Below are positions 31,156 through 63,585 of a stretch of DNA of 64,000 bases, piece by piece. Position 1 is the stretch's first letter. Each line of letters starts with the position of its first letter. Below the pieces are notes generated by a model, which was given only the letters and a program-made list of their open reading frames with translations, made no database searches and was not told the origin of the DNA. The stretch is from Actinokineospora sp. NBRC 105648 (GTDB lineage: Bacteria > Actinomycetota > Actinomycetes > Mycobacteriales > Pseudonocardiaceae). The position numbers were made by a program, and so were the translations under genes. The stretch is from NCBI RefSeq assembly GCF_030269645.1, contig NZ_BSTR01000006.1, forward strand, positions 151,541-215,540, given 5' to 3'.

Positions 31156-32364
31156 CTACCCGGCATCCCGCCCGTCTCGGGGGGCCGGGACCCGGTGGCT
31201 CCGCTTGCGTTCCGCCGCCGCGGCGGCGATGCCGATGGTCAGCGTGATCGCGCCGCTGCCCACGATCGCCACCGCGGGTGACGCGGCGGTCATGACCAGG
31301 GCGGAGGTGGCCGCGACGATGCTGTAGCCGATGCCGGTGGTGGCGTACATGATCGCGTAGCCCGCGGTGTGCGCCGAGGGCGGCAGTGCCTCGCGCAGGG
31401 ACAGGTTCCGGGTGACCAGCACGGCGGACTGGAACACGCCGCCCACGGCGAGGGCCACCCCGATGCCGATCACCCCGGGGACGGCCGCCACCAGGGTGAG
31501 CGCGGTGGTGGTGACCAGCAGGCTCAGGAACGCCTGGACCCGGCGGCTGCCCGGCCAGTCGCGCCTGCCGTACAGGTAGCCGCCGAGGACGCCGCTCACC
31601 CAGAAGGCCGCGAGCAGCGGCGCCACCGCCCGCACCGAGATGCCCCTCGACTCGACCAGGGCGGGCAGCACCAGTTCGATGACCGCCACCATCGCCATGG
31701 ACGCGGCGGCGGTCAGGTAGCTGGGCCACGCGGACGCGAGGATCCGCGCGGTGGAACCGCCGCCGCGTGCGGGGGCCGGGTCGAAGCGGCCCTCGGGCAG
31801 GAAGAACACGATCAGCAGGACCGCGACCGCGTTCAAGCCCGCGGCCAGCGCCATCGGCACGCCGGGGCCCGCGCCCAGCGCCACGAAGGCGACGAGCACC
31901 GGCGCGGCCGCCCACACCAGGCCGTTGAGCGAGACCTCGGCGCTGAGCACCTTCGAGACGTCGTGCTCCGGCACCAGCCGGGTGAGCGTCGCGCGCATGC
32001 CGCCCGGCGAGGCGGACGGCCCGAACCCGGAGAGGAACGTCAGCGCGAACAGCACCGGCAGCGGCAGCGAGTGGCCGAAGGCGAGGACCGCGTAGGCGAG
32101 CGCGCCGGTCCCCAGGCCCACAGCGAGGTGCAGCCGCGCGCGGTCCGGGTCGAACCAGACCCCCAGCAGCGGCGCACCGACCACTTCGGACAGCACCCAC
32201 ACCGCGGCGAGCGTCGCACCGAGCGCGTACCCGCCCGGCAGTTCCCTGGCCAGGAAGACGAACGCCAGTGGTGCCATCGCGATCGGCAGCTTGTTCGCCA
32301 GCGCCGCCGCCGTCCAGACCAGCACCGGCCTGGTGGCGATGCTGCGGTAGCCGACCGTGGTCAT
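31156..32364 (-). CDS. MFS transporter, last gene of the PGM1-type ligase operon
   Basis: This is a 402-aa membrane protein with about twelve hydrophobic segments, a GVWFDPDRARLHLA loop after the second segment and a long central loop (FFLPEGRFDPAPARGGGST). It is an MFS exporter by fold; the likely cargo is the product or an intermediate of this cluster. ATG 32364 lies 17 nt after the PGM1-type ligase stop, so the two are co-transcribed. Three MFS genes occur in the cluster, which suggests export of more than one compound or redundancy. Confidence 0.83.
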   Translation of the reverse strand: MTTVGYRSIATRPVLVWTAAALANKLPIAMAPLAFVFLARELPGGYALGATLAAVWVLSEVVGAPLLGVWFDPDRARLHLAVGLGTGALAYAVLAFGHSLPLPVLFALTFLSGFGPSASPGGMRATLTRLVPEHDVSKVLSAEVSLNGLVWAAAPVLVAFVALGAGPGVPMALAAGLNAVAVLLIVFFLPEGRFDPAPARGGGSTARILASAWPSYLTAAASMAMVAVIELVLPALVESRGISVRAVAPLLAAFWVSGVLGGYLYGRRDWPGSRRVQAFLSLLVTTTALTLVAAVPGVIGIGVALAVGGVFQSAVLVTRNLSLREALPPSAHTAGYAIMYATTGIGYSIVAATSALVMTAASPAVAIVGSGAITLTIGIAAAAAERKRSHRVPAPRDGRDAG

Positions 32365-32381
32365 CAGTGCGGGATCCTTCG

Positions 32382-33695
32382 CTAGTCCGGGAACGCTTCC
32401 ACCAGGGCGCGTTCGATGGCCTCGGCCGCCGCGTGGTCCGCGCCGACGACGCACGCCTCACCGCCCGTGCCGTCCGGCCGGGTGCCGCACACCGGGACGA
32501 GCACGCCGGTCCGCGTGCCCGGGTCGTAGGCGAGCCCCCGGTCGCGCAGCTCGCGGAGCGCGTCGGGAAACGCCGGGAAAGCGCACTCGCGGCGCTCGAT
32601 GAGGCAGCGGTCGGCGAACCAGTCGCCGCCGACCACCCGCTCACCGATCCGGAACAGGTGGGTGGAACCGCCGTGGCGGGCGTTGAACTCGTTGAACAGC
32701 ACCCGGCCGTCCGCGGTCAGCATCGCGTCGATGTTCGACAGCCCGCGGTACCCCATGGCGCGCATGGCCTCCGCGAGCGCCCGCAGGTCGGCCAGGAAAC
32801 CGGGGAACGCCGCCGCCCCGGCCACCGCCGGGGGCACCGGGATGACCACCCCGTCCAGCACCGGCTTCAACCTGACCTGGCCGTGCCCCAGGATCTCCAC
32901 GCCGTCGTCGGTGATCGCCGTCTCGCCCCACAGCGACACCGAGTCCGGCAGGTACTCCTCGATCACGACCCGGCGCCGCAGTCCGTCGGTGTACCAGGAC
33001 CAGCGCTCGCCCACCCGCGCCTCCAGCGCCGTGCGGTCGGCGCACACCGTCGAGTGCAGCGCGCCCAGCGCCTCGACGTCCGCGGTCGGGGTGATGATCT
33101 CGTTGCCGAGACCCGCGACGTGCACGTCCTGCTTGACGATCGCCGAGCGGCCGCGGGAGAGCAGGTGCCACAGGAAGGCGGTCGCGTCCTCCGGCGAGTC
33201 GGTGACCACACCGGCGGGCAGCGGCAGACCGATACCCGAGGCCACCGCGCGGAACACGACCTTGCTGTTGAGCAGCTCGTTGCCGCCCTGCTCGGCGAAG
33301 GCGAAGCCGTCCGCGGTCAGGTCCAGGCGCCGGATCAGCTGGTTGACGTAGTCGTCGAGGTAGAACGCCTCGACCCGGTCGACGCCGCGCGCGGCGACCG
33401 CGTGGCGCACGACCTCGAGGAACGACTCGTCGGCCAGGCGGTCGCGGGTGAGCACGTCCGGCAGCTTGCCCGCGGGCGGCACCAGGACCTCGATGTCCTC
33501 GGGGCGGAACCCCAGGTGCTCGGTGGCGTAGGCGAGGAAACCGGGTGCTGGCTCGAACGGGAGCACCACCACCTCGCCGGGCTGGGCGCTCCAGACCATC
33601 CGTTGCCCCTGGCTGCCCACGTGCCTGCGGCCGCCGTCGGACATGTTCGCCAGTTCCGGCTCGTTCGACCAGTTGCCGATGAGCAGCCTCGGCAT
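32382..33695 (-). CDS. PGM1-type ATP-grasp peptide ligase
   Basis: This 437-aa protein has a pre-ATP-grasp domain (MPRLLIGNWSNEPELANMSD; GSQGQRMVWSAQPGEVVVLP; VLVPPAGKLPDVLTRDRL), the ATP-grasp core (EQGGNELLNSK, SAIVKQDVHVAGLGNEI, VVIEEYLPDSVSLW, FNEFNARHGGSTH) and the PGM1-type C-terminus (LAYDPGTRTGVLVPV). As I recall, PGM1 of pheganomycin joins a non-proteinogenic amino acid to a ribosomal peptide N-terminus. Here it may form an amide bond independently of the NRPS modules. ATG 33695 follows AAAGGAG. It shares an operon with the DSD1-like PLP enzyme and an MFS gene. Confidence 0.87.
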   Translation of the reverse strand: MPRLLIGNWSNEPELANMSDGGRRHVGSQGQRMVWSAQPGEVVVLPFEPAPGFLAYATEHLGFRPEDIEVLVPPAGKLPDVLTRDRLADESFLEVVRHAVAARGVDRVEAFYLDDYVNQLIRRLDLTADGFAFAEQGGNELLNSKVVFRAVASGIGLPLPAGVVTDSPEDATAFLWHLLSRGRSAIVKQDVHVAGLGNEIITPTADVEALGALHSTVCADRTALEARVGERWSWYTDGLRRRVVIEEYLPDSVSLWGETAITDDGVEILGHGQVRLKPVLDGVVIPVPPAVAGAAAFPGFLADLRALAEAMRAMGYRGLSNIDAMLTADGRVLFNEFNARHGGSTHLFRIGERVVGGDWFADRCLIERRECAFPAFPDALRELRDRGLAYDPGTRTGVLVPVCGTRPDGTGGEACVVGADHAAAEAIERALVEAFPD

Positions 33696-33739
33696 GAATG
33701 GCTCCTTTCGCGTGGGGCGTCCCATTGGAGTCTCTCGAA

Positions 33740-35017
33740 TCAGAAGAAGGTGCGCACGAAATCGACAACGGTTTCACCGCGTAGGACCGGGATCAGCTGC
33801 CACTTGTCGAACGCGGTGCACGGGTAGGCGAGACCGAGGCCGACCCAGTCACCGACCCGCGGGTCGGCGTCCGGGCCGAGTCGGATGAAGGCGTGCTGGT
33901 CGTTGATCTCCTTCAGCACGCAGTCCCGCAATGCCAGCACCTCCCCGCCGTCGCGACGGATGAGCTGCGGTTCGGGCATCCAGGCGTCGAACGACAGGTC
34001 GCGCTTACCCGCGGTGAGCAGCGCCAGTCCGGGTTCCGGTCGGGACGTCACCCTGGCCCACGCCCGCAGGGCGGGGCGGAACCCGCCGGGCTCGGTGCGG
34101 GAGAACGGCGACATCCACCGGTAGAAGCCGTCGTCGTGCGCGACGTAGCAGCCGCTGCGCAGGATCGGCAGCACCGCCAGGCCGTCGGCCCACGGTCGGG
34201 TCAACCCGGCCGCCACCTGGTCGAAGAAGCAACTGCCGCCCGCGCTCACGATGACGGACTCGGCTTCGAACATCCCGTCCTCGTGCAGCCGGGTGGTGAG
34301 CAGGCGCAGCCGCTCGACGAACTCGTCGACCACGGCCAGGCTGTGCGGCGACGGGTCGTTCACCAGCACCCCCTCGTACCCCGCCACGCCGACCAGGCGC
34401 AACAGCGGGCTCGCCGCGATCTCCTTGGCGGTCGCGAGCGCGTCGTCCAGCGTCCGCGCGCCCGCCCGGCCACCGGTCCGCCCGATCTCTACCAGCACGT
34501 CCACCGGGCGCGTGGGCGGGCGGGCCGCCAGCGCCCCGGTCATCCGCCGGACCACCTCGGGGGAGTCGGCGAAGCAGCTGAACTCGAACCGCTCGTCCCG
34601 GTCCAGCTCGTCGGCCACCCAGTGCAGCGCGGGGGCGTCGACGAGCTCGTTGGCGAAGAGCACCCGGGAGACGCCGAAGCGGCGGTAGACGCGCAGCTGC
34701 GCGGCGTTCGCCGCGGTGAGCCCCCACGCCCCCGCCGCGAGCTGCCGGGCCCACAGCTGCGGCGCCATCGTCGTCTTGGCGTGCGGGGCGAGCAGAACGT
34801 CCCGCTCGGCGCACCACGCCGCCATGGTCTGGATGTTGTGCTCCAGCGCCCCCTCGTCGAGTGTGAGCACCGGGCCGAGGAAACCGTCGTCGAAGAGGTT
34901 GAGCCCCCTGGCGGCCACCTCGTCGACCGTGCCGCCCTCCGCGCCGACCGGCAGGCCCTTGAAGCGCCAGTCGACCACCTCGTGCCCGAGCGCGTCCACC
35001 GCGTCCCGATCAATCAC
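33740..35017 (-). CDS. DSD1-like PLP enzyme (D-serine dehydratase / D-threonine aldolase family)
   Basis: This 425-aa protein has an alanine-racemase-type barrel. The PLP lysine is in LLAPHAKTTMAPQLW, phosphate contacts lie in VSAGGSCFFD, and the C-terminal domain has metal-site residues His in NDQHAFIRL and Cys in AYPCTAFDKW. Family members dehydrate or cleave 3-hydroxy-D-amino acids in a metal-dependent way. In this cluster it could make or break a beta-hydroxy amino acid. I start at GTG 35017, 6 nt after GAGGGGAGG; the frame stays open 80 codons further but crosses the operator region. Confidence 0.82.
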   Translation of the reverse strand: MIDRDAVDALGHEVVDWRFKGLPVGAEGGTVDEVAARGLNLFDDGFLGPVLTLDEGALEHNIQTMAAWCAERDVLLAPHAKTTMAPQLWARQLAAGAWGLTAANAAQLRVYRRFGVSRVLFANELVDAPALHWVADELDRDERFEFSCFADSPEVVRRMTGALAARPPTRPVDVLVEIGRTGGRAGARTLDDALATAKEIAASPLLRLVGVAGYEGVLVNDPSPHSLAVVDEFVERLRLLTTRLHEDGMFEAESVIVSAGGSCFFDQVAAGLTRPWADGLAVLPILRSGCYVAHDDGFYRWMSPFSRTEPGGFRPALRAWARVTSRPEPGLALLTAGKRDLSFDAWMPEPQLIRRDGGEVLALRDCVLKEINDQHAFIRLGPDADPRVGDWVGLGLAYPCTAFDKWQLIPVLRGETVVDFVRTFF

Positions 35018-35052
35018 CCGCAGCCTCCCCTCGATCGTCTTCCCGACAAAGG

Positions 35053-35090
35053 TTGCCAGACTTGGCACATGATGGCAATGTTGTTGGCAA
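35053..35090. promoter_or_regulatory. TTGCCA/TGGCAA operator array A (PLP enzyme / TauD promoters)
   Basis: TTGCCA (35053-35058) is followed by TGGCA (35063-35067), TGGCAA (35073-35078) and TGGCAA (35085-35090). The first two form an inverted repeat with 4-bp spacing; the last three repeat every 10-12 bp. It lies between the divergent PLP-enzyme and TauD units. Confidence 0.65.
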
Positions 35091-35120
35091 ATCCCTGTCA
35101 ACCGAGAAAGGTGTGGATCT

Positions 35121-36029
35121 ATGACGGACACCATCGCCACCGCCGTCGACATCGGGATCACCCCGTTGACCGGATACACCGGGGCCGAGGTCACGGGCGT
35201 GGACGCGACCGCCCCGCAGAGCGCGGAGACCATCGCCGCGCTGCGCGCCGCGCTGCTCAAGTACAAGGTGATCTTCCTGCGGGACCAGCGCCTGGACTAC
35301 GCCAGCCAGGTCGCCTTCGCCCAGCGGTTCGGCGAGCTGACCCTGGGCCACCCGCTCTACGGCGGCCCCGAGGGCAAGCCGCTGCTGCGCGAGATGGACT
35401 CCAAGGGCGAGGGCACCCGGGCCAACCACTGGCACACCGACCTGACCTACCTGGAGCGCCCGCCCGCCTTCGCGTTCCTGCACAACGTGGTCTGCCCGCC
35501 GGTCGGCGGCGACACGATCTGGGCCAACACCGCCGTCGGGTACGCGAACCTGCCCGCGGAGCTGCGCGACCTCGCCGACCGCCTGCGGATCGTGCACTCC
35601 AACGACGCCGACTTCACCGACGACACCTACGACGGCGACTCGCGCACCAACTACCTGATGCACCAGTTCGAGGCCGAGCACCCGGCGGTGCGCGTGCACG
35701 AGGAGACCGGTGAGCGCTCGCTGCTGCTGGGCGGCTTCGCCCGGCGCGTGCACGGGTTCAGCCCGCAGGCGGGCCGCGACCTCATCCGCGTCCTGCACGA
35801 GTACGCGACCAAGCCGGAGTTCACCGCGCGCTGGAAGTGGCGCGCCGACGACCTGGTCATCTGGGACAACCAGGCGACCCTGCACTACGCGGTCTACGAC
35901 TACCACGGCCAGCACCGCCGCGGTGAGCGTGTCACCGTCGGCGGGCCGGTGCCCGTCGGCGTCGACGGTCGTCCCGGTGTCGTGCTGCGCGGCGACACCT
36001 CGGCGTTCGCCGCCGGTCTCACCCGCTGA
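35121..36029 (+). CDS. TauD/TfdA-family Fe(II)/2-oxoglutarate dioxygenase
   Basis: This 302-aa enzyme has the facial triad His105-x-Asp107 (NHWHTDLTY) and distal His255 (QATLHYAVYD), with a 2-oxoglutarate-binding Arg near 270 (HRRGERVTV). It probably hydroxylates an amino acid or a carrier-bound intermediate. TauD-type amino-acid hydroxylases occur in several NRPS-PKS clusters. ATG 35121 follows GAGAAAGG. It starts the plus-strand unit that continues with the membrane hydroxylase and the class V PLP enzyme. Confidence 0.88.
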   Translation: MTDTIATAVDIGITPLTGYTGAEVTGVDATAPQSAETIAALRAALLKYKVIFLRDQRLDYASQVAFAQRFGELTLGHPLYGGPEGKPLLREMDSKGEGTRANHWHTDLTYLERPPAFAFLHNVVCPPVGGDTIWANTAVGYANLPAELRDLADRLRIVHSNDADFTDDTYDGDSRTNYLMHQFEAEHPAVRVHEETGERSLLLGGFARRVHGFSPQAGRDLIRVLHEYATKPEFTARWKWRADDLVIWDNQATLHYAVYDYHGQHRRGERVTVGGPVPVGVDGRPGVVLRGDTSAFAAGLTR

Positions 36030-36119
36030 CGACTCGCCCGCTGACGACTCCGCCGCCCGCACCGGGTGGTCCAGCCGACGGCCGGCGCGGGCGGTGTCAC
36101 GATCCCTTGGGGGAAGCCC

Positions 36120-37214
36120 GTGAGCCTCTTGTCGCAAGACCAGCACGACCTCGACTTCAGCAAGCTCGCACCGCACATCCGCAAGCAGGTGCGGGCGCTG
36201 TGCGAACCGGACGACTACCACGGTGCGCTCGGCCTGCTCTTCGACTACGCGGTGGTCGCGGTGTCGATCTACCTCTGCGTCGGCGTGTCCTACTGGTTCT
36301 ACCCGGTCTCGCTGCTGCTGATCGGGTCGACCCAGCGCGCCATGGTCAACATCCTGCACGAGTCGTCGCACAAGGTGCTGGCGCGCAACGGGAAGCTCAA
36401 CGTCGCGCTCGGCACGGTGTTCTCCGGGCACCTCGTCTTCCACATGTACAACCCGTACCGCAGCTCGCACATCGGCTTCCACCACCGGTACCTGGGCGAC
36501 CCGGACAAGGACCCCGACTACGGTTTCCACCGGGAGTGCGGCATCTACGACCCGGACTCCTCCAACCGGTCGTTCTTCCTGCGCAACATCCTGTTCGCGG
36601 TGCTGGGCCTGCGCACCCTCGAGTACGTCCGGTACGTGGTGCAGGACCGGCTGCTGTTCCGCCAGGACCAGGTCGCCGTGTCGATGCCGATCAGCCTGCG
36701 CGCCGAGCGGTGGGTGCTGGGCGGGCTCTGGGCGGTGATCATCGGGGTGTGCGCCGCCTTCGGCTTCCTGCCGGAGCTGCTGCTCTTCTGGTTCGTGCCG
36801 ATGTTCACCACCGCGGTCACCATCGGGTGGCTCTCCGAGCTCGCCGAGCACTACCCGCTACCGGAGAGCGAGGGCAAGCAGATCCTGATGACGCGCAACC
36901 GGCACGGGTGGGCGGTCGAGCGGTTCCTGCTCGGGCGGCACAACGACAACTACCACCTGGTGCACCACCTCAACACCGGCGTGCCGTTCTGGAACATGAA
37001 GAAGGCGCACCGGGTGCTGCTCGGGGACCCGGCCTACGCCCGCTGGGACAGCCTGTGGGCGGGGATCCTCACCCGCTCGCCCGGGCGGCGCGACCGGGAG
37101 ACCCTCATCAGCTACGCGGGCAAGTACCGGGACTGGCGGCGCGCGGGCGGCGACCCGCGGGCGCTGGACCGCAGCTTCGCCGAGTCCGCGGCGGCAGGCC
37201 GGGAGGCCGCCTGA
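36120..37214 (+). CDS. Membrane di-iron fatty-acid-desaturase-like hydroxylase
   Basis: This 364-aa membrane protein has the three histidine boxes HESSH (80-84), HIGFHH (117-122) and HLVHH (279-283) and four to five hydrophobic segments. The family includes desaturases, beta-carotene hydroxylase-like enzymes and amino-acid hydroxylases. In a cluster without acyl-chain synthesis, hydroxylation of an amino acid or small scaffold is more likely than lipid desaturation; that is inference. GTG 36120 lies after GGGGGAAG. The stop overlaps the next ATG (TGATG). Confidence 0.82.
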   Translation: MSLLSQDQHDLDFSKLAPHIRKQVRALCEPDDYHGALGLLFDYAVVAVSIYLCVGVSYWFYPVSLLLIGSTQRAMVNILHESSHKVLARNGKLNVALGTVFSGHLVFHMYNPYRSSHIGFHHRYLGDPDKDPDYGFHRECGIYDPDSSNRSFFLRNILFAVLGLRTLEYVRYVVQDRLLFRQDQVAVSMPISLRAERWVLGGLWAVIIGVCAAFGFLPELLLFWFVPMFTTAVTIGWLSELAEHYPLPESEGKQILMTRNRHGWAVERFLLGRHNDNYHLVHHLNTGVPFWNMKKAHRVLLGDPAYARWDSLWAGILTRSPGRRDRETLISYAGKYRDWRRAGGDPRALDRSFAESAAAGREAA

Positions 37215-38329
37215 TGATCCACCTCAACACCGCGGGCGCCGGTATCCCGGCGCCCGCGGTGCCCGTCGTCATGGCCCGCCACCTCGCCGAGGAGGCCGAG
37301 CTCGGCCCGTACGAAGCCGAGGCCGCGCACGCGCACGACCTGGAACACCGGGTCTACGAGGTGCTCGCGCGGCTGGTCGGCGCGCCGGTGGACGAGATCG
37401 CGCTGTTCGCCAGCGCCACCGACGCGTGGTGCCGGGTGGTGTGCAACCTGCCCCTGCCAAGGGGAAGCCGGATCTGGGTCACCCCGTACGAGTACGCGGG
37501 CAACCTCATCGCCTTGCAACGGGTGGCGCTGCGCCACGGCTGCGTGATCGAGGTGGTGCCGACCGACTCGGCGGGCGAGCTCGACCTGGAATGGATGCGC
37601 GCCAACCTCGACGACCGGGTGAGCCTGGTGTCGTTGGTGCACATGCCTTCCGGCGCGGGCGCGGTGCTACCGGTCGCCGAGGTCGGCGCCCTGCTCGCGG
37701 ACTCGGCCGCGGTCTACGTCGTCGACGCCTGCCAGACCGTCGGGCAGCTCCCGGTGGACGTCCGGGAGATCGGCTGCCACCTGCTCACCGCGGCGGGGCG
37801 GAAGTTCCTGCGCGGACCGCGGGGGAGCGGGTTCGCGTTCATCTCGCGCGCGCTGTGGGATCGGGTCGAGCTGCCGTTCCACGACTTGCACGTGGCCGAG
37901 GTCGAGTCGCTGACCGCCCACCGCCTCACCACTGACCGGGCGATCAGGTTCGAGACGGCTGAGCGCAACGGCGCGGTGGTGCTGGGACTGCTGGCCGCGG
38001 CCGAACACGCCGCGACCCGACCGGACGGCGCGGCACCGGAGGTGTTCGAGGCGCTGTCGCGGGTGGTGGCGGAAATCCCGGGGACCCGGCTGCTGGCCCC
38101 GAGCGGAACGCGGGCGGGCATCGTCTCGTTCGTGCACGAACACGTTTCCGCGCAACACATCCGGCACGAACTCGCGGCCGACGGCGTGACGGGGTGGGTG
38201 GCGATCGGATCGCACACACCGCTCCACCTCGCCGAGTTCCCGCGGTTCGTGCGGCTGTCCGTGCACCACTACAACGACATCGACCAGATCGAGGCGACCG
38301 GGCGATCGCTGCGCCGCACCCTCCGGTGA
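37214..38329 (+). CDS. Class V PLP-dependent enzyme (cysteine desulfurase / EgtE-like fold)
   Basis: This is a 371-aa fold-type I PLP enzyme. The PLP lysine is in LLTAAGRKFLRGPRGSGF, the PLP-ring aspartate in VYVVDACQTVGQLPVDV, and the start MIHLNTAGAGIPAPAV is typical of the family. Class V members act as desulfurases, C-S lyases, epimerases or aminotransferases. There is no obvious sulfur-transfer partner, so epimerase, lyase or transaminase activity on a cluster amino acid is possible. ATG 37214 overlaps the hydroxylase stop. Confidence 0.82.
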   Translation: MIHLNTAGAGIPAPAVPVVMARHLAEEAELGPYEAEAAHAHDLEHRVYEVLARLVGAPVDEIALFASATDAWCRVVCNLPLPRGSRIWVTPYEYAGNLIALQRVALRHGCVIEVVPTDSAGELDLEWMRANLDDRVSLVSLVHMPSGAGAVLPVAEVGALLADSAAVYVVDACQTVGQLPVDVREIGCHLLTAAGRKFLRGPRGSGFAFISRALWDRVELPFHDLHVAEVESLTAHRLTTDRAIRFETAERNGAVVLGLLAAAEHAATRPDGAAPEVFEALSRVVAEIPGTRLLAPSGTRAGIVSFVHEHVSAQHIRHELAADGVTGWVAIGSHTPLHLAEFPRFVRLSVHHYNDIDQIEATGRSLRRTLR

Positions 38330-38353
38330 CGGTCTTGGCCGCGATGCTAACCA

Positions 38354-38364
38354 TCCACATTGGA
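38354..38364. repeat. TCCANNNTGGA palindrome, copy 5
   Basis: TCCACATTGGA, 25 nt after the class V PLP gene stop, in the gap between convergent genes. Confidence 0.45.
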
Positions 38365-38419
38365 CACATCGACGCCGTGCTCCGGTGCACCGCTCGGCCA
38401 CGCGGTCCGGGTGACTGAG

Positions 38420-55686: not shown

Positions 55687-56903
55687 GCGGGCGGGGCGCC
55701 GCGCGCCGCACCAGACCCGCCACCGCCGCGCTGGCGCTCGTGACGGGCATCGGCCCGTTCGCGACCGACACCTACCTCGCCGCGCTGCCGGACCTGCGGC
55801 AGTCACTGCAGTCCAGCGCCACCACCGCGCAGCTGACCCTCACCGCGTTCATCGCGGGCATGGCCGTCGGGCAACTGGTGCTGGGCGCGGTCAGCGACGC
55901 CACCGGCAGGCGCAAGCTGCTGCTGATCGGCGCGCTCCTGTTCACCGCGCTCACCGCGGTCTGCGCCATCGCGCCCAACGGGGCGGTCCTGGTCGCGGCC
56001 CGGTTGGTCGCGGGCATCGCCGCGGGCGGGGGAGTGGTCATCGGGCGGGCGGTGGTGACCGACGCCCACGAGGGCACCGCCGCGGCCGCGATGTTCGGCA
56101 CCCTGGCCTCGATCAGCTTCCTCGGGCCGATCGTCGCGCCCGTGCTCGGCGGCGCCATCCTCGGCGTCGGCACCTGGCGCACGGTGTTCGCCGTGCTCAC
56201 CGCGCTGGGCGCGGTCATGGTCGTCGCGGTGCTGGTGGGCATCCCGGAGACGCTGCCGCCCGAGCGCAGGCACCCGCCAGGGCTGCGCCAGTACGGGGCG
56301 CGGATGGCCGATCTCGCGCGCGACTGGGGCTTCATGCGCCACGTCGCCGTCTACTGCCTGTCCGCGGCCGGGTTCTTCACCTACATCGGCGGGTCGGCCT
56401 TCGTGCTGCGCTCGGCGTTCGACGTGGGGCCGGGGCTGTACTCGGTCGTCTTCGCCTCCAACGCCGCGGCCATGGCGCTCACCGGCGTGCTGTTCCGGGT
56501 CCTGGTCGGCCGGGTCGGCGCCGAGCCGCTGCGCGCCGTCGGGGTCACCAGCGGCGCGCTGGCCTCGGTGGGGCTGCTCGCCACGGCGCTGTTCGCCCCG
56601 GGCGCGCCGGTGGCCGTGCCGTGGGTGCTGCTGTGCGTCGTGGTGGGCGGCACCGGGCTCACCGTTCCCGCCACCACCGTCCTCGCCCAGCAGGCGGGCA
56701 GGCGCGCGGCGGGGACCGCGGCGTCCCTGCAGGGCGGCTGCGGGTTCCTCGTCGGCGCGGCGATGACGCCGCTGACCGGTGTCCTCGGGAGCGGTTCGCT
56801 GCTACCGATGGCCGCCGCGATGGCGATCTTCTACGCCGCCGCCCTGGTGCTGCTGCGCGTGGTGAGCAGGCACAGCGAGCGCACAGGGGCCCCCACCCCC
56901 TGA
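55683..56903 (+). CDS. Bcr/CflA-type MFS drug exporter
   Basis: This is a 406-aa twelve-segment MFS protein with the family signature GIGPFATDTYLAALPDLRQS near the N-terminus and LVLGAVSDATGRRKLLLIGA in the loop after segment 2. Bcr/CflA proteins export drugs such as bicyclomycin and chloramphenicol. It is likely the main exporter for the product of the PKS-NRPS unit. GTG 55683 overlaps the toroid-enzyme stop. A 14-bp hairpin follows. Confidence 0.87.
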   Translation: MSGRGAARRTRPATAALALVTGIGPFATDTYLAALPDLRQSLQSSATTAQLTLTAFIAGMAVGQLVLGAVSDATGRRKLLLIGALLFTALTAVCAIAPNGAVLVAARLVAGIAAGGGVVIGRAVVTDAHEGTAAAAMFGTLASISFLGPIVAPVLGGAILGVGTWRTVFAVLTALGAVMVVAVLVGIPETLPPERRHPPGLRQYGARMADLARDWGFMRHVAVYCLSAAGFFTYIGGSAFVLRSAFDVGPGLYSVVFASNAAAMALTGVLFRVLVGRVGAEPLRAVGVTSGALASVGLLATALFAPGAPVAVPWVLLCVVVGGTGLTVPATTVLAQQAGRRAAGTAASLQGGCGFLVGAAMTPLTGVLGSGSLLPMAAAMAIFYAAALVLLRVVSRHSERTGAPTP

Positions 56904-56937: not shown

Positions 56938-57798
56938 TCAGGCCGCCGAGGACCGCGGGTACTCCGCGTCCTGGTACTCCCGGTAGAGCGCGCGCAGTGA
57001 GTTGGGCGGGAACTCGTCGTGCCACGGCTTGACCCCGCCGATGAAGTGCACCAGCCCGTCGGGCTCGGTCAGGTAGTCGAGGCGGCCGTTGCCGAACCGG
57101 CCGTGCACCGAGTGCTCGACGAGCTTGTTCCACTTCTCCGGGAACGGGACCCAGTCGCCGGAGAACAGGATGTTGAGCACGTCCTGGTCGTGGGTGCGGA
57201 ACTGGTCGCCGTAGCGCCGGTACAGCTCGACCGCCCGGGCGGTCACGCCGTCCGCGCGCCAGCGGTCCACATCGATCAGCAGCACGCCGGAGTTGAAGTA
57301 CCCGGGCGCCTCGGCGCCGTGGTCGCTGTAGACCGCGGTCTCGCCGAGCCGCCACGACCGCTCGCCGCCGACCTCGTTGAGCGAGGCGCCGAGGGTGCGC
57401 CCGCCCAGGTCGACGTCGAGCAGCTCGGTGAGGTCGCCGAGCACCAGGGTGTCCACGTCGAGGTAGACCGCGCGGTGCACGTCGGCGGGCAGCACGTCGC
57501 CGACGTAGAGCCTGCCCAGCGCGGACGAGGTCCAGTGCTTGATCATCTCCTGCGGCAGCCGCACCATGTCGGTCAGCCGGTGCACCAGCACGTCGCCGTG
57601 CGCGCCCACCCGCTCCGCCACCTCGGTCCGCCCCGCCGCGCTCAGGCCGCCGTCGATGATGTGGAACCGCGGCCGCGCCGCCGGGTCGCGCAGCCCGGCG
57701 CGGATCGACCTGGCCGCCACGGCGGCGGGCCGGACGTAGTTGTCGTCGATGGCGAAGACGATCTCCGCGTGCGCGCCGTGCTGCTGGGGGTTGGGCAT
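56938..57798 (-). CDS. Glycosyltransferase family 8
   Basis: This is a 286-aa GT-A fold enzyme. The start AEIVFAIDDNYVRPAAVAAR, the metal-binding DxD in AVYLDVDTLVLGDL, FNSGVLLIDVDRW, HDQDVLNILF and WNKL / HFIGGVKPW near the end are all GT8 landmarks. It would add a sugar from a nucleotide donor. No sugar-nucleotide genes are in the window, so a common housekeeping donor is likely. ATG 57798 follows GGGAGGAC. It is the last gene of the aminotransferase-SDR-GT8 unit. Confidence 0.86.
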   Translation of the reverse strand: MPNPQQHGAHAEIVFAIDDNYVRPAAVAARSIRAGLRDPAARPRFHIIDGGLSAAGRTEVAERVGAHGDVLVHRLTDMVRLPQEMIKHWTSSALGRLYVGDVLPADVHRAVYLDVDTLVLGDLTELLDVDLGGRTLGASLNEVGGERSWRLGETAVYSDHGAEAPGYFNSGVLLIDVDRWRADGVTARAVELYRRYGDQFRTHDQDVLNILFSGDWVPFPEKWNKLVEHSVHGRFGNGRLDYLTEPDGLVHFIGGVKPWHDEFPPNSLRALYREYQDAEYPRSSAA

Positions 57799-57819: not shown

Positions 57820-58557
57820 TCACCAGGGCAGGGGGCCCCGGTCGTCGAAGAACCCGCCGCTCGGGCCGTCGTCGGGCAGGGTCGCCAGCCGGGTGATGAC
57901 CCGGGCGCCCTCTGCCGCGGTCCGGGTGCCGGTGAACCCGTTCAGGTCGGTGGCGGTGAACCCCGGCGCCACCGCGTTGACCTTGATCCGGGCCAGCTCC
58001 GGGTCCCGCTCGAAGGCCTCGGCGTACTGGGCGGTGAGCATGTTCAGCGCGGCCTTGGAACTGGCGTAGGCCAGCCGCCGGGTCGGGTCGCCGGGGATCG
58101 GCTCCGGCCGCCGGGTCAGCTCGACCGACGCGGTCGTGCTGGACACGTTGACCACCCGCGGGGCCCGGGAGCGGCGCAGCAGCGGCAGCATCGCCCGGGT
58201 CACGGTGACCACGCCGAAGACGTTGGTCTCGTAGAGCGGGCGCAGGTCCTCGGCGGTGGTGTCCAGCGACAGCGGGCCGAGGAAGATCCCGGCGTTGTTG
58301 ACCAGCACGTCGAGCACGCCGTGGCGGTCGTCGATGTGCTCGGCCGCGGCCCGCACGGACCCGGCGTCGGTCACGTCGAGGGTGACCGGCTCGGCCCGCA
58401 CGCCCCGCGCGGCCAACTCGGCCGCCGCCCGGGCACCCCGGTCCGGGTCGCGGCTGCCCAGCAGCACGGTCAGGCCCAGCTCGGCGAGCTGGCGCACGGC
58501 CTGGAGGCCGATGCCCTTGTTGGCCCCGGTCACCAGGGCCGTGGTGGCGGTGCGCAC
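57820..58557 (-). CDS. Short-chain dehydrogenase/reductase
   Basis: This is a 245-aa classical SDR: TGANKGIG (10-17), VLVNNAGIF, VVNVSSTTAS and catalytic YASSK. The C-terminus FFDDRGPLPW places it in the carbonyl-reductase-like subfamily, as for the SDR at 2792. It may reduce the beta-keto group left by the PKS. I start at GTG 58557, 5 nt after GGGAGGG; ATG 58572, overlapping the aminotransferase stop, would add five residues. Confidence 0.87.
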   Translation of the reverse strand: MRTATTALVTGANKGIGLQAVRQLAELGLTVLLGSRDPDRGARAAAELAARGVRAEPVTLDVTDAGSVRAAAEHIDDRHGVLDVLVNNAGIFLGPLSLDTTAEDLRPLYETNVFGVVTVTRAMLPLLRRSRAPRVVNVSSTTASVELTRRPEPIPGDPTRRLAYASSKAALNMLTAQYAEAFERDPELARIKVNAVAPGFTATDLNGFTGTRTAAEGARVITRLATLPDDGPSGGFFDDRGPLPW

Positions 58558-58571: not shown

Positions 58572-59888
58572 TCAGGCCAGCTCGGCGCGGATCAGGGACA
58601 GGGTGGCGTCGGTGATCTCGGTGGCCGCCTCGTCGTCGACGGTGAGCGGGGGCACGACCATGACCGCGTCCCCCTGCTGCCGCAGCAGCACCCCGGCGCG
58701 CCTGCCCCTGGCCAGGACCGCCGCCGCGTGCTCGGCCGACGGCGTCTGCACCACCAGGATCAGGCCGAGGCCGCGGACGTCGAGGACGCCGTCGAGGTCG
58801 GACAGCGCGGCGAGCCGCCGGAGCATCCGGCCGCCCAGCTCGTCCGCGCGCTCCACCAGCCGGTCCTTCTCCAGCACGTCGAGGCAGGCCAGGGCGGCGG
58901 TGACGCCGAGCGCGTGGCCGGAGGTGGTGTGGCCGTAGCGCAGGCCGCCGACGACGGGGTCGTTGCGGAACTCGTCGTGCACCCGGGCCCGCGCGCTCAC
59001 CGCGCCGATCGGCACGTAGCCGCCGCCGAGCCCCTTGCCGGAGACGAGGATGTCCGGTGCGACGTCCTCGCGCACGCAGGCGAACATGCGCCCGGACCGG
59101 CCGTAGGCGGTGAACACCTCGTCCAGCACGAGCAGCGCCCCCGACGCGTCGCACAGCTCGCGGACCCCGCGCAGGAACCCCTCGGGCAGCACGACACCGC
59201 CGCCGACGTTGAGGAACGGCTCCACGACGACCGCCAGCGGCGGGCCGTCGGGGTGGTCGTTGACGGCCCGGTCGAAGGCGGCGAGCAGCGGGGCCAGCGC
59301 CGCTGGCCGTCGCACGTCCTCGGTCGCGCACGGCAGGTCCACCATGGTGACGGGCAGCGGCGGCGACAGCGGGTTCTGGTTGCGCGGCAACGCCGAGAGG
59401 CTCCGGGACACCATCGTCGCACCCTGGTAGCCGCGGGCCAGCGACACCACCCGCGTGCGGTTCTCCCCCCGGTAGGACGACCAGCAGGCGGCCATGATCA
59501 TCGCCGCCTCGACGCCCTCGGACCCGCTGTTGACGAACAGCGTCTTGGCCATGCCCGCGGGCAGGTGGCCCGCCAGCCGCTCGGCCAGCAGGCCCGCTCG
59601 GTCGTGGGTGGCCGTGGCGAGGTCGAAGTGGTGCAGCCGGTCGAGCTGCGCGGTGAGCGCGGCGACGACCTCCGGGTGGCGGTAGCCGCAGGTGGAGTTC
59701 AGCGACCCGGCGTCGAGGTACTCGCGGCCGTCGACGTCCCACACCCGGTGCCCCTCGCCGCGGACCACCATCAGCTCGGTCCGGTCGGCGTCGATCGGTG
59801 ACCAGGTGTGCCAGACGTGCGCCCGGTCGCGGGCCCTGGCCGCGCTCGCCCGAGCGGTGCTGGTCAGCGGATCGGCGGTGTCCCTCAC
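58572..59888 (-). CDS. Class III PLP-dependent aminotransferase
   Basis: This is a 438-aa fold-type I aminotransferase: GTP-like FVNSGSEGVEAAMIMA, PLP-ring LLVLDEVFTAYGRSG, PLP lysine in ILVSGKGLGGGYVPIG and YGHTTSGHALGV. Class III enzymes often transaminate amino groups distal to the carboxylate or beta-keto compounds. It could aminate the ketone made by the PKS module or build an omega-amino or beta-amino acid. GTG 59888 follows GGGAGC. The TTGCCA/TGGCAA array D lies upstream. Confidence 0.88.
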   Translation of the reverse strand: MRDTADPLTSTARASAARARDRAHVWHTWSPIDADRTELMVVRGEGHRVWDVDGREYLDAGSLNSTCGYRHPEVVAALTAQLDRLHHFDLATATHDRAGLLAERLAGHLPAGMAKTLFVNSGSEGVEAAMIMAACWSSYRGENRTRVVSLARGYQGATMVSRSLSALPRNQNPLSPPLPVTMVDLPCATEDVRRPAALAPLLAAFDRAVNDHPDGPPLAVVVEPFLNVGGGVVLPEGFLRGVRELCDASGALLVLDEVFTAYGRSGRMFACVREDVAPDILVSGKGLGGGYVPIGAVSARARVHDEFRNDPVVGGLRYGHTTSGHALGVTAALACLDVLEKDRLVERADELGGRMLRRLAALSDLDGVLDVRGLGLILVVQTPSAEHAAAVLARGRRAGVLLRQQGDAVMVVPPLTVDDEAATEITDATLSLIRAELA

Positions 59889-60122: not shown

Positions 60123-62123
60123 TCACACGCGGCGCAGGGTGCGCAGCAGGTATTCCTCGCGGTTGAGCGGGTTGTCGTCGGTCCGCGCGCGGCGGGGCGC
60201 CTCGCCGGTCACCGGCCGGTGGTGGTCGAACACGGCTTCCAGCAGGCCCTCGCCCCTGGTGAGCGAGGGGAGCGACACCCGCAGCTCGTGCACCCGGGCC
60301 GCGGGCAGCACCCCGGTCACCACGGTGGCCGAACCCGCGGGCTCGGTCGCGTCCGGGATCCCGCCGAGGCGCGTCAGGACCGGGAGGACGGCGTCGACCG
60401 CGTCCGGCGGGAGCTCCAACCGGAACCGGTCCACCGGCTCGTGCACGGTCGTCCCGGCCTCGCGCAGCGCCGCCATCAGCACCAGCGGCGCCAGGTCGCG
60501 GAAGTCGCCCGCCGTGCTGGACATGCTCTTGTCGAACGTCCCGTGCGAATGGCTCTGCCTGGCCCAGTAGCCCGAGTGCGTCATGGTCACCGCGCAGTCG
60601 CGCACCCGCCACCCGCACAGACCCTCGGCGAGCGTGGCGCGCACCGACTCCTCGACCGCCCGGAAGAACGCCGCGGGCATCGATCCCAGCTCCACCCCGA
60701 GGCCGAACACCACCCCGGACCCGGTCGGCGCGGGGTCGACCCGCAGCCCCACCGTGGCCAGGAACGGGTTCGGCGGCACCCCGATCAGCTCGACGGCCGA
60801 CCCGCTGCCGGTGGGCCGCTCCAGGCAGATCGTGGTCGTGGGGGCGAAGGTCACCGCCACCCCGTGCTCCTCGGCCAGGGTGGCCTCGATGACCTCCTTC
60901 TGCACCTCGCCGTAGAGGGAGAGCGCGATCTCCTCGCGCACCCCGTCGTGCCGCAGGTTGATCAGCGGGTCCTGCTCGGCCAGCAGGCTCAGCGCGGCGT
61001 GCGCGGCGCCCCGGTCGGCCGGGTCCACCGGCGACACGACGGTCTCCAGCGTCGGCGGGGGGAACTCCCCGTCCGCCGACGCGCCCGGCGCCGGGTCGCC
61101 GACCGGGTCGCCGACGCGCACGTTCGCCAGCCCGCGAACGGTGCCGATCTGACCCGCCACCAGGGCGTCCGAGCGGGTGGCCACGCCACGGTCGAACACC
61201 GTGAGGGCGGTGACCCGGTCCTCGACCCGCGCCCCGGCCCTGGTCCGCAGCCGCACCCGGTCCCGCACGCGCAGGGTCCCGTCGAACATCCGCACGTGCG
61301 CGATCCGCTCACCCGCCGGCCCGCGCTCGATCTTGAACACCGTGCCGGACGCCGGGTTGCCGGGTTCGCCGCCCGCCACCGGCAGCAGCCCGGCGATCCC
61401 GTCGAGCAGCGCGTCCACCCCGGCGCCGGTGATCGCCGAGCCGAAGTACACCGGGTGCGCCGCGCCGCTCGCGGTCTGCTCGGCCAGTGCGCGCAGCAGC
61501 AGGTCCGGGTCGGCGGTGCCGCCGCCGCGCACGGCGGCGGCGAGCAGCCGGTCGTCCGCGCGGGTCAGCAGGTCGGTGGCCGGTTCGGCGAAGACCGGGT
61601 CGTCCAGCCGGTACGGGGTGAACGCCGCCGCCGGGGTGCCGGGCCCGCTCGCGGCGCCCATCGGCACCGCGTCGGCGCCGAGCTTCTCGGCGATGCCGCG
61701 CAGCACCCGGTCGGGGTCGGCGCCGCGGCGGTCGAGCTTGTTGACGAACAGCAGCGTGGGGATGCCGAGCCTGCGCAGGGCGCGGGCGAGCACCCTGGTC
61801 TGCCCCTGCACGCCCTCGACCGCCGAGATCACCAGCACCGCGCCGTCGAGGACGCCGAGCACCCGCTCCACCTCGGCGATGAAGTCGGAGTGCCCGGGGG
61901 TGTCGATGAGGTTGACCGTGCGCCCGCCCGCGCTGAAGGAGGCCACGGCGGACCGGATGGTGATGCCCCGGCGGCGTTCCAGCTCCATCGTGTCGGTCTG
62001 GGTGCTGCCCTCGTCCACGCTGCCCACCTCGTCGATGACACCGGTGCGGTGCAGCAGCCGTTCGGTCAGGCTGGTCTTGCCCGCGTCCACGTGGGCGAGG
62101 ATGCCGAGGTTGAGGACCGTCAT
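60123..62123 (-). CDS. Ribosomal protection GTPase, Tet(M)/Otr(A) type
   Basis: This is a 666-aa EF-G-like GTPase. G1 is AHVDAGKT (10-17), G2 RRGITI, G3 DTPGHSDF and G4 NKLD, followed by the EF-G domains II-V and a C-terminal extension of Tet(M)-type length. It lacks the EF-G-specific insertion and matches ribosomal protection proteins that dislodge tetracyclines from the 30S A-site. In an antibiotic cluster this strongly suggests self-resistance to a ribosome-binding product. ATG 62123 follows GGAGG, spaced 9 nt. It is transcribed alone, from a promoter region carrying TTGCCA half-sites. Confidence 0.9.
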   Translation of the reverse strand: MTVLNLGILAHVDAGKTSLTERLLHRTGVIDEVGSVDEGSTQTDTMELERRRGITIRSAVASFSAGGRTVNLIDTPGHSDFIAEVERVLGVLDGAVLVISAVEGVQGQTRVLARALRRLGIPTLLFVNKLDRRGADPDRVLRGIAEKLGADAVPMGAASGPGTPAAAFTPYRLDDPVFAEPATDLLTRADDRLLAAAVRGGGTADPDLLLRALAEQTASGAAHPVYFGSAITGAGVDALLDGIAGLLPVAGGEPGNPASGTVFKIERGPAGERIAHVRMFDGTLRVRDRVRLRTRAGARVEDRVTALTVFDRGVATRSDALVAGQIGTVRGLANVRVGDPVGDPAPGASADGEFPPPTLETVVSPVDPADRGAAHAALSLLAEQDPLINLRHDGVREEIALSLYGEVQKEVIEATLAEEHGVAVTFAPTTTICLERPTGSGSAVELIGVPPNPFLATVGLRVDPAPTGSGVVFGLGVELGSMPAAFFRAVEESVRATLAEGLCGWRVRDCAVTMTHSGYWARQSHSHGTFDKSMSSTAGDFRDLAPLVLMAALREAGTTVHEPVDRFRLELPPDAVDAVLPVLTRLGGIPDATEPAGSATVVTGVLPAARVHELRVSLPSLTRGEGLLEAVFDHHRPVTGEAPRRARTDDNPLNREEYLLRTLRRV

Positions 62124-62230: not shown

Positions 62231-62271
62231 ACGCCGGGTGGTCGCCCGGGCAGGCCGCCCGGGGCCGCCGG

Positions 62272-63585
62272 TCAGCCCGCGCCGGTGTTCTGACCGGTCA
62301 GCTGCGGTCCCGGTTCGACGGCGGGATCCGCGGCCGCGGGCAGGCCGTAGACCTTCGCCAGCGTCTTGGCCAGGCCGCGCCACACCTCGGCGGCCAGCTC
62401 GACGTTGCGCGCCTGCTGGGCCTGCCCGGCGAGGTCGTGCATCAGCGCCGTACCCGCCTCGACGCGGCCGTCGAGCAGCATGAGGCTGCCGCGCAGCGCC
62501 TGGAACCGGATCCGGTCGCGGAAGGACAGCAGGAGGTCGTCCGCGGCCACGGCCGCGCACAGCGCCGCCGCCTCCTCCAGCCGGTCCTCGGCGAAGGCCA
62601 GCTGCGCCAGCAGGACGCGCAACTGCTGCTGGTGCAGCTCCGAACCGACGCGGGTGACCACGGGTTCGACCTCGGCGATGACCGCGCGGACCCGGTCGGT
62701 CCGCGGTTGCGCCGTCTGCAGGTGCAGCGAGGCTGCGGCCAGCCGCAGGCGCACCCACAGCGTCAGGTCGCGGTGGCTGTCGAGCTCCTCCAGCGCGCGG
62801 TCCAGCGCCCGCTGCGCGTTGGCGTGGTCGCCCTGGCGGATGTGCACCGTGGCCGACGCCCACAGGGCCTCGACCAGCCGCTTGCCGCGGGCGTCCTCGG
62901 TCAGCGCGCACAGCTCGTCGGCGTGCGCGCGGGCCTCGCCGAGCACGCCCGCCTCCGCCTCCGCGGAGATGAGCGCGTGCAGGGCGGCAGCCCGGTCGTC
63001 CACCGGCAGCTCCGCGGCCAGCTCGTGCGCCTCTTGGGCGAGCCTGCGCGCGGCGCCGGTGTCGCCGAGCAGGCGCAGGCAGCGGGACCGGCGGGTGCGT
63101 CCCCTGGCCCGCAGCTCCTGGGACGCCAGCTCGTCGCTGAGGGACACCAGCTCGGCCAGGAGGGTGTTCTCCTCGTCGTAGCGGCTCTGCTGGCTGCGGA
63201 TGCCCGCCAGCAGCCACAGCGCCTGCCAGCGCAGGGCGCTGTCCTGGCTCTCCTCGGCCGCCAGCGCCTCTTGCAGCACCTCGGCCACGCCGTCGTCGGC
63301 GACCGGCTGCGCGCCGCCCGCGCCGGTGCCCATCGCCGAGGTCACCGCGGCGAGGACCTGGGCCAGCGAGAGGGCTCGCGGCCGGTCGTCGCCCTCGAAC
63401 GCCGAGAGCGGCACGCCGAGCCGGGCGGACAGGTGCACGAGCACCCGCTCGGTGGGCTGGCGCGCCCCGGACTCCAAGCGCGAGAGGTAGCCGGTGGACA
63501 GACCCCCTTCGGCCAACGCCGCCTGGGACAGCCCGCGCTCCAGGCGGAGAGCTCGCAGCCGTGGGCCGAATGTCGGGTTGTCCAT
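62272..63585 (-). CDS. XRE-family regulator with TPR-like C-terminus
   Basis: This 437-aa protein has an N-terminal Cro/C1-type helix-turn-helix (FGPRLRALRLERGLSQAALA; EGGLSTGYLSRLESGARQPT, residues 7-62) and about 350 residues of helical repeats. The layout is that of ligand- or peptide-sensing cluster regulators of actinomycetes. It is the only DNA-binding protein in the cluster and the best candidate to recognise the TTGCCA/TGGCAA sites, one of which lies in its own promoter. ATG 63585 follows AAGGAGG with ideal spacing. Confidence 0.87.
   Translation of the reverse strand: MDNPTFGPRLRALRLERGLSQAALAEGGLSTGYLSRLESGARQPTERVLVHLSARLGVPLSAFEGDDRPRALSLAQVLAAVTSAMGTGAGGAQPVADDGVAEVLQEALAAEESQDSALRWQALWLLAGIRSQQSRYDEENTLLAELVSLSDELASQELRARGRTRRSRCLRLLGDTGAARRLAQEAHELAAELPVDDRAAALHALISAEAEAGVLGEARAHADELCALTEDARGKRLVEALWASATVHIRQGDHANAQRALDRALEELDSHRDLTLWVRLRLAAASLHLQTAQPRTDRVRAVIAEVEPVVTRVGSELHQQQLRVLLAQLAFAEDRLEEAAALCAAVAADDLLLSFRDRIRFQALRGSLMLLDGRVEAGTALMHDLAGQAQQARNVELAAEVWRGLAKTLAKVYGLPAAADPAVEPGPQLTGQNTGAG

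What the first reader, a model, noticed from the sequence alone, without database searches (positions are those of the whole stretch)
31156..63585. Hybrid PKS-NRPS-ATP-grasp cluster with no product I can recognise
About 22 genes in divergent units combine A-PCP-C, KS-AT-ACP and A-PCP proteins with three ATP-grasp ligases, TauD, membrane di-iron and P450 oxygenases, three PLP enzymes, an SDR, a GT8, a GNAT, three MFS exporters and a ribosomal protection protein. I know of no characterised cluster with this set. A short peptide-polyketide carrying oxidised non-proteinogenic amino acids and possibly a sugar is a reasonable guess.
Basis: inference. Interest (0 to 1): 0.8.

Follow-up and report, generated by a model that had tools for sequence, protein, structure and literature searches.

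The report
Orphan peptide-polyketide antibiotic gene cluster
This is an intact-looking cluster of 23 bacterial genes that probably builds an unknown, amino-acid-decorated peptide-polyketide; its five-protein core recurs in six other clusters for which I found no description, and their resistance-type genes hint at a drug that acts on the ribosome.

Summary

No product could be assigned, but this is not a one-off. Five proteins (P450, A-PCP-C, KS-AT-ACP, A-PCP, thioesterase) occur together in 7 of 7 clusters compared: the window, four genomes of its family and two Streptomyces linear plasmids. Their KS domains form one clade (100/100); catalytic and most A-pocket residues are conserved. Around the core, parts are swapped: ATP-grasp ligases, a GntB-like hydroxylase plus class-V PLP enzyme (4 of 7), sugar genes. 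Each cluster has at least one aminoglycoside-type kinase, N-acetyltransferase or ribosomal-protection-like gene.

Best reading: two amino acids and one malonyl unit form a core; ATP-grasp ligases add residues, one probably from hydroxylated arginine; a sugar is likely; the target may be the ribosome. The core chemistry is well supported; residues, assembly order and target are inferred.

Against the ribosome reading: such protection genes are common in this family (132 of 386 genomes).

No curated cluster database was available. Novelty: a new orphan family of a known kind.

The parts
31156..32364 (-). MFS exporter 1
   Evidence: MFS_1 68.8 bits; 79% id in G229, 64% in G161
32382..33695 (-). 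PGM1-type ATP-grasp peptide ligase
   Evidence: PreAtp-grasp 91.8 and PGM1_C 54.2 bits; PGM1 3wvq E 1.5e-75; 72% id in G229
33740..35017 (-). PLP enzyme of the D-threonine aldolase / D-serine dehydratase fold
   Evidence: 3gwq E 7.4e-70; 83% id in G229
35121..36029 (+). TauD-type Fe(II)/2-oxoglutarate oxygenase
   Evidence: TauD 194.6 bits; AtsK E 1.8e-70; HxD present; in 5 of 7 clusters
36120..37214 (+). Membrane di-iron hydroxylase, GntB-like (likely hydroxylates a free amino acid such as arginine)
   Evidence: NF041365 GntB 324.8 bits, below cut-off 380; His boxes; in 4 of 7 clusters
37214..38329 (+). Class-V PLP enzyme paired with the GntB-like hydroxylase
   Evidence: Aminotran_5 135.3 bits; GRKF motif in 4 of 4 copies, K read as PLP lysine
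38420..39655 (-). MFS exporter 2
   Evidence: homologues in G161, G128
39779..40630 (+). GNAT acetyltransferase, candidate self-resistance
   Evidence: Acetyltransf_1 48 bits; 76% id inside the G161 cluster
40939..42129 (-). ATP-grasp amino-acid ligase (LAL1)
   Evidence: LAL_C2 29.1 bits, just below 29.4; 63% id in G128
42155..43336 (-). Cytochrome P450, core protein
   Evidence: p450 58.7 bits; haem Cys in 7 of 7
43333..46356 (-). NRPS A-PCP-C, core protein; pocket D-A-L-W-I-G-G-V-F, read from recall as valine-like
   Evidence: HHxxxDG and PCP Ser in 7 of 7
46476..49394 (+). PKS KS-AT-ACP, core protein; malonyl-type AT, no KR
   Evidence: Cys-His-His, GHS and AFH motifs, ACP Ser in 7 of 7; clade 100/100
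49676..51514 (+). NRPS A-PCP, core protein; pocket D-S-A-L-I-A-E-V-W, substrate unknown
51511..52257 (+). Thioesterase, core protein
   Evidence: Thioesterase 120.7 bits; GHSxG in 7 of 7
52287..53270 (+). alpha/beta hydrolase
   Evidence: Abhydrolase_3 158.9 bits; HGGG and GNSAG in 6 of 6; in 6 of 7 clusters
53279..54487 (+). ATP-grasp amino-acid ligase (LAL2)
   Evidence: LAL_C2 73.2 bits; L-amino acid ligase BL00235 E 4.3e-20; in 4 of 7 clusters
54595..55686 (+). (alpha/alpha)6 barrel, carbohydrate epimerase/hydrolase-like; squalene-cyclase Pfam match only marginal
   Evidence: Model pLDDT 95.2; best Foldseek hits glucuronyl hydrolase, cellobiose 2-epimerase; 65% id in G229
55683..56903 (+). 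MFS exporter 3 (Bcr/CflA type)
   Evidence: TIGR00710 227.3 bits over 200.9; not grouped with any gene of the six relatives
56938..57798 (-). GT8 glycosyltransferase
   Evidence: Glyco_transf_8 146 bits; not grouped with any gene of the six relatives
57820..58557 (-). SDR oxidoreductase
   Evidence: adh_short 148.4 bits; 61% id in G343
58572..59888 (-). Class-III aminotransferase
   Evidence: Aminotran_3 255 bits; 58% id in G343
60123..62123 (-). Otr(A)/Tet-like ribosomal protection GTPase, candidate self-resistance
   Evidence: 706.7 bits vs Otr(A) cut-off 900, 670 vs 775; separate from two EF-G-like paralogues of the genome; in 3 of 7 clusters
62272..63585 (-). HTH regulator with TPR-like part
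   Evidence: HTH_3 42.1 bits; in 6 of 7 clusters

Best explanation
An intact-looking orphan biosynthetic cluster. Shown by sequence: a five-protein engine (P450; A-PCP-C; KS-AT-ACP; A-PCP; thioesterase) conserved in seven clusters, with catalytic residues in place. Inferred: the A-PCP-C protein loads amino acid 1 (valine-like pocket, perhaps oxidised on the carrier by the P450), the A-PCP protein loads amino acid 2, the KS-AT-ACP adds one malonyl unit, the C domain joins the pieces and the thioesterase releases them. The order aa1-aa2-ketide or aa1-ketide-aa2 is open. Class-III aminotransferase and SDR may convert the beta-keto group. PGM1-type and two LAL-type ATP-grasp ligases then add amino acids, one probably made from arginine by the GntB-like hydroxylase, the class-V PLP enzyme, TauD and the D-threonine-aldolase-like enzyme. 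GT8 may add a sugar. MFS pumps export the product. The producer protects itself with the Otr(A)-like GTPase and the GNAT, so the product is probably a polar ribosome inhibitor.
For: Gene content. Core in 7 of 7 clusters; KS clade 100/100; catalytic and pocket residues. GntB-like plus class-V PLP pair in 4 of 7 clusters; with a proline dehydrogenase in NBC_01006 and on a Pseudosulfitobacter plasmid beside AzlC/AzlD-type genes, suggesting a free amino-acid pathway. PGM1 structure match. Sugar genes: GT8, sugar-barrel fold; in relatives GH4, polysaccharide deacetylase, GT2 and a PIG-L match just under its cut-off. Resistance-type genes in 7 of 7 clusters: APH-type kinase group in 4, GNAT in 2, ribosomal-protection-like in 3 (APH confirmed by Pfam for one G128 copy, and by annotation in the two plasmids; the G343 copy by similarity only).
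Against: Ribosomal-protection genes occur in 132 of 386 genomes of the family, so presence alone means little; in G343 the gene lies about 10 kb from the P450 gene with others between. The kinase and GNAT families are broad. GntB and Otr(A) cut-offs are not met. The A2 code is also present in NBC_00158, G128 and G343, where groups no GntB-like gene, so A2 need not use the arginine-derived residue. GT8 and MFS3 have no homologue grouped in the relatives. The thioesterase gene follows A-PCP in six clusters but KS-AT-ACP in NBC_01006, so the module order is unresolved.
Confidence: 0.55

Rival explanations
1. The product is a peptide-ketide enzyme inhibitor, for example a statine-like or keto pseudopeptide against proteases. 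The ribosomal-protection and GNAT genes are incidental or unrelated resistances.
For: PGM1-type ligases occur in pseudopeptide pathways such as ketomemicin (recalled; a ketomemicin paper was seen only in a search listing). Ribosomal-protection genes are common in the family (132 of 386). S9-type peptidase genes lie in or near relatives.
Against: All seven clusters hold at least one resistance-type gene of kinds used against translation drugs; the GNAT is 76% identical between two genera and inside both clusters.
Confidence: 0.25
2. Two neighbouring clusters were merged: a PGM1/GntB peptide pathway (31-40 kb) and a separate NRPS-PKS pathway (42-63 kb).
For: G+C steps from 0.70-0.74 at about 31-42 kb to 0.74-0.78 beyond. 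PGM1, MFS1 and the D-threonine-aldolase-like gene are not grouped in four of the six relatives. A PGM1-MFS1 pair also occurs at loci without the core.
Against: G229 keeps both parts on one contig; G161 interleaves them in another order; NBC_01006 has GntB and the PLP enzyme beside A-PCP-C.
Confidence: 0.12

Closest known systems
Clusters on plasmids of Streptomyces sp. NBC_00158 (NZ_CP108163.1) and NBC_01006 (NZ_CP108701.1)
   Same: All five core proteins, at 50-63% identity where printed (P450 of NBC_01006 grouped only), HTH regulator, four annotated ATP-grasp proteins each, MFS pumps
   Different: No PGM1-type, GT8, SDR/class-III aminotransferase or ribosomal-protection gene grouped there; both have APH-family kinases. 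Their products are unknown to me.
Pheganomycin PGM1 peptide ligase (3wvq)
   Same: PreAtp-grasp and PGM1_C domains, E 1.5e-75
   Different: There the ligase extends a ribosomal peptide (recalled); here it sits in an NRPS-PKS cluster and no precursor gene was recognised.
Guanitoxin pathway hydroxylase GntB (L-arginine gamma-hydroxylase)
   Same: Same membrane di-iron subfamily, 324.8 bits, His boxes
   Different: Below the curated cut-off; only this step is recognised, and here it is paired with a class-V PLP enzyme (passages of PMC10367076 seen).
Otr(A)/TetM-type ribosomal protection proteins
   Same: Full-length similarity, TetM structure E 2.4e-108; G1 and G3 motifs
   Different: Below both curated cut-offs; substrate unknown.
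Amipurimycin/miharamycin clusters
   Same: Polyketide enzymes plus ATP-grasp ligases that add amino acids (recalled; papers seen in a listing only)
   Different: AmcF and AmcH models far below cut-off here (100.4 vs 325, 107.6 vs 370); no nucleoside gene recognised.

Membership tests
Hybrid NRPS-PKS cluster | A, PCP, C, KS, AT and ACP domains with catalytic residues | tested here: met
   motifs present in the window and aligned in the six relatives; A3 of G128 lay outside my short gene call, though a 1020-aa open frame covers the gene
Hybrid NRPS-PKS cluster | Release thioesterase | tested here: met
   PF00975 120.7 bits, GHSxG in 7 of 7; that it releases the chain is inference
PGM1-type ATP-grasp peptide ligases | PreAtp-grasp and PGM1_C domains over cut-off | tested here: met
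   91.8 vs 27.5 and 54.2 vs 22.5 bits
Pheganomycin-type RiPP pathway | Precursor peptide gene beside the ligase | tested here: inconclusive
   The gene call lists none between 31156 and 35017, but very short genes can be missed
GntB arginine gamma-hydroxylase equivalog | NCBIfam NF041365 cut-off 380 bits | tested here: not met
   324.8 bits
GntB arginine gamma-hydroxylase equivalog | Histidine boxes of the membrane di-iron fold | tested here: met
   HxxxHH and HLVHH boxes in 4 of 4 copies
GntB arginine gamma-hydroxylase equivalog | Activity on free L-arginine | not testable with these tools
   Needs an enzyme assay
Tetracycline ribosomal protection proteins / Otr(A) | Curated cut-offs (775 and 900 bits) | tested here: not met
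   670 and 706.7 bits; 669.7
Tetracycline ribosomal protection proteins / Otr(A) | Branches with ribosomal protection proteins, apart from EF-G | tested here: inconclusive
   Separated from two own EF-G-like paralogues (100/100) in a 7-row tree without a named Tet protein
Amipurimycin/miharamycin-type clusters | AmcF and AmcH equivalogs | tested here: not met
   100.4 vs 325 and 107.6 vs 370 bits

The most novel reading that the evidence does not exclude
The seven clusters define an undescribed class of glycosylated aminoacyl-ketide antibiotics: one fixed two-amino-acid plus one-malonate core, extended by interchangeable ATP-grasp ligases with residues such as a cyclised hydroxyarginine, and aimed at the small ribosomal subunit, with kinase, acetyltransferase and ribosomal-protection genes as alternative self-resistances.
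Probability: 0.25. Interest if true: 0.8.

Novelty: new variant of a known kind. Interest (0 to 1): 0.55.

Why it matters
If right, one conserved five-protein core marks a family of unexplored antibiotics whose variable parts can be read from the genes, and the cluster's own resistance-type genes give a testable target. The GntB-like hydroxylase paired with a class-V PLP enzyme is also a possible new route to cyclic or oxidised arginine-type amino acids, found outside this cluster as well.

Tried and rejected
A squalene-cyclase reading of 54595-55686 was dropped: the Pfam match is marginal (26.7 vs 26.1 bits), and the model's best matches are glucuronyl hydrolase and cellobiose 2-epimerase, although squalene-hopene cyclases also match lower down that list.

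Guanitoxin-type pathway: only the GntB step is recognised. Amipurimycin-type pathway: models far below cut-off. Negamycin, edeine, detoxin, bactobolin, muraymycin and others were considered from memory only; none was tested by sequence.

Using the barrel gene 54595 as a family marker misled at first: two of its three relatives in the family (G141, G066) show no core set in the 60 kb taken around them, and the 14 named loci, mostly MAGs, are 28-40% identical and hold no core set.

A remnant condensation domain before the NBC_01006 A-PCP would have fixed the module order, but the match is weak (E 0.004), so the order is left open. Taking the Otr(A)-like gene as proof of a ribosomal target was rejected after the control (132 of 386 genomes). 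For the in-cluster copies, 40 kb times copies over genome size is 0.005-0.008 per genome; clusters related by descent are not independent.

My gene caller shortened G128's P450 and A-PCP-C (292 and 837 aa); the A-PCP-C lies in a 1020-aa open frame, while the search tool counted one TGA in its C-domain match, which I did not resolve. The left end of the NBC_00158 cluster was read only as annotation. Only part of the relatives' genes were run against Pfam.

Literature: ten searches, of which eight by enzyme or gene-set words, one by structure codes (none found) and one by compound names; listings read. Passages of PMC10367076 and PMC11888242 seen; no full paper read.
Full report
What is there. 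The window lies in an 8.43-Mb, 149-contig genome (C6:151541-215540) with 0.70-0.78 G+C across this region. A self-trained codon-usage caller gives 23 genes between 31156 and 63585. To the right follow a methyltransferase gene and a second HTH gene and further genes I did not annotate; the left flank holds a short relic with inverted ends and a WYL regulator.

It belongs to a family. The whole KS-AT-ACP query failed twice on the server. Relatives were therefore found with the PGM1-type ligase, the condensation-domain part of A-PCP-C, the barrel gene, and the KS-AT-ACP protein against plasmids. The C-domain query matched 8 of 386 genomes of the family, the own genome included. Five of these eight (own, G161, G128, G343, G229) hold the core; in the other three (G060, G007, G384) I saw a related A-PCP-C but not the rest of the core in the 40-60 kb taken. 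That search scored at most four candidates per genome, so absences are not proof. Two Streptomyces linear plasmids were added.

What is constant. Clustering the proteins of the seven clusters puts P450, A-PCP-C, KS-AT-ACP, A-PCP and thioesterase in 7 of 7; the HTH regulator and the alpha/beta hydrolase in 6 of 7; TauD in 5 of 7. Homologues of the window's 23 genes number 16 in G161, 15 in G229 (two contigs), 11 in G128, 9 in G343, 9 in NBC_01006 and 8 in NBC_00158. Only GT8 and MFS3 have none. G229 keeps the block MFS1-PGM1-D-threonine-aldolase-like / TauD-GntB-PLP in the same order at 72-87% identity, while G161 holds those genes in another order, its 16 shared genes being 47-78% identical. 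The seven KS domains form one clade (100/100) apart from eight other KS domains of the own genome (of 68 KS-model matches there) and three other KS domains.

Is the engine intact? Aligned residues show KS Cys-His-His, AT GHS and AFH motifs (malonyl-type by recalled rules), ACP and PCP serines, HHxxxDG of the C domain and the haem cysteine in 7 of 7. The A1 pocket is D-A-L-W-(I/M/A)-G-G-(V/I)-F and the A2 pocket D-S-A-L-(I/V)-A-E-V-W. The pocket positions were placed by motif, not by a structural alignment to a reference domain. A1 resembles valine codes as I recall them; A2 matches none that I recall. All seven P450s read GATEN or GGTEN in the I helix where I would expect a threonine in the last place (expectation recalled).

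What varies. ATP-grasp ligases differ in number and kind; none was recognised among the G343 genes examined. The GntB-like hydroxylase and the class-V PLP enzyme travel together in the window, G229, G161 and NBC_01006. In NBC_01006 and on a Pseudosulfitobacter plasmid a proline dehydrogenase gene lies between them, and on the latter they sit beside AzlC/AzlD-type genes and an Lrp-type regulator. That suggests the pair makes a free non-proteinogenic amino acid. The reading as arginine chemistry rests on the GntB model (324.8 bits, cut-off 380) and is inference. SDR and class-III aminotransferase are shared only with G343, where a BadF-type ATPase, GH4, GT2 and a PIG-L match (26.9 bits, cut-off 28.2) lie nearby; G128 has a polysaccharide deacetylase and an FAD-dependent sugar-lactone/alditol-oxidase-like gene. 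The barrel protein 54595 folds with high confidence (pLDDT 95.2) and is nearest to sugar hydrolases and epimerases. Together with GT8 this makes a sugar likely.

Resistance-type genes. A group of APH-type kinases occurs in G128, G343, NBC_00158 and NBC_01006; GNAT in the window and G161; ribosomal-protection-like GTPases in the window, G229 and G343. So 7 of 7 clusters have at least one. The window's GTPase is the only strong match of its kind in its genome and separates from two EF-G-like paralogues. The control weakens this: 132 of 386 genomes have such a gene at E 1e-110 or better, though the C-domain search found the core in only five. G161 and G128 have such a gene elsewhere in the genome. 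The in-cluster position is unlikely by chance (0.005-0.008 per genome for 40 kb), but the clusters share descent.

Mechanism, with status. Shown by sequence: presence, integrity and conservation of the engine; presence of ligases, oxygenases, PLP enzymes, pumps and resistance-type genes. Inferred: substrates, order of modules, site of the sugar, use of the arginine-derived residue, target. The order aa1-aa2-ketide is the natural reading of A-PCP-C followed by A-PCP, and NBC_01006 places A-PCP, KS-AT-ACP and thioesterase in that order; but in the window and the other five relatives the thioesterase gene follows A-PCP, which also allows aa1-ketide-aa2.

Comparison with what is known. It works like other hybrid NRPS-PKS pathways whose products are finished by ATP-grasp ligases. 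It is not filed under pheganomycin, guanitoxin, tetracycline-resistance or amipurimycin families, since defining cut-offs were not met or could not be tested (see membership test). No curated cluster database was available, and the eight text searches by enzyme or gene-set words cover open-licence papers only and were read as listings. So 'undescribed' means: not found by these searches.

Verdict. Observation confirmed, interpretation partly supported and extended. An orphan cluster by itself is common; a seven-member family with a fixed core and swapped decorations and resistances is more useful. Interest 0.55.

Noticed in passing
30826-31120: About 295-bp relic with inverted ends (ggcctgt/acaggcc) between the WYL regulator gene and MFS1; looks like an insertion-sequence remnant, type not tested.
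   Followed up: partly
54595-55686 and L013-L026: The barrel protein has 28-40% identical relatives in very different bacteria and archaea, mostly MAGs (Lokiarchaeota, Bacteroidales, Gammaproteobacteria and others), in L014, L020 and L021 within a few kb of an adenylating enzyme. Role unknown.
   Followed up: partly
L027:5948-12340: In G229 the HTH, barrel and ribosomal-protection genes lie beside a second hybrid protein: A-PCP-KS-AT-ACP, luciferase-like monooxygenase, C.
   Followed up: no
L065:16164-17213: The G161 cluster contains a 349-aa class-II tRNA-synthetase-like protein (D/K/N type), near a RimK-like ligase and an asparagine synthetase.
   Followed up: no
L084:15007-18236: Pseudosulfitobacter plasmid trio: GntB-like hydroxylase, proline dehydrogenase, class-V PLP enzyme beside AzlC/AzlD genes; may be a free-standing amino-acid pathway.
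   Followed up: no
L086:8001-8909: Eleftheria terrae plasmid has a GntB-like gene (38% identical) between NRPS genes.
   Followed up: no
L113-L114 (G060), L115-L116 (G007): Two further clusters combine an A-PCP-C relative with another adenylating enzyme and two class-V PLP enzymes; apparently a different pathway.
   Followed up: no
L067 (G183), L068 (G346), L070 (G161 second place): PGM1-type ligase and an MFS gene like MFS1 are neighbours at loci without the core (44-59% identity to the window's pair), so the pair is a wider unit.
   Followed up: no
42155-43336 and six homologues: All seven core P450s have an unusual I-helix sequence ending in E-N where a threonine is expected.
   Followed up: partly
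31000-42000 versus 42000-64000: G+C steps up from 0.70-0.74 to 0.74-0.78, near the border between the variable module and the conserved engine.
   Followed up: partly
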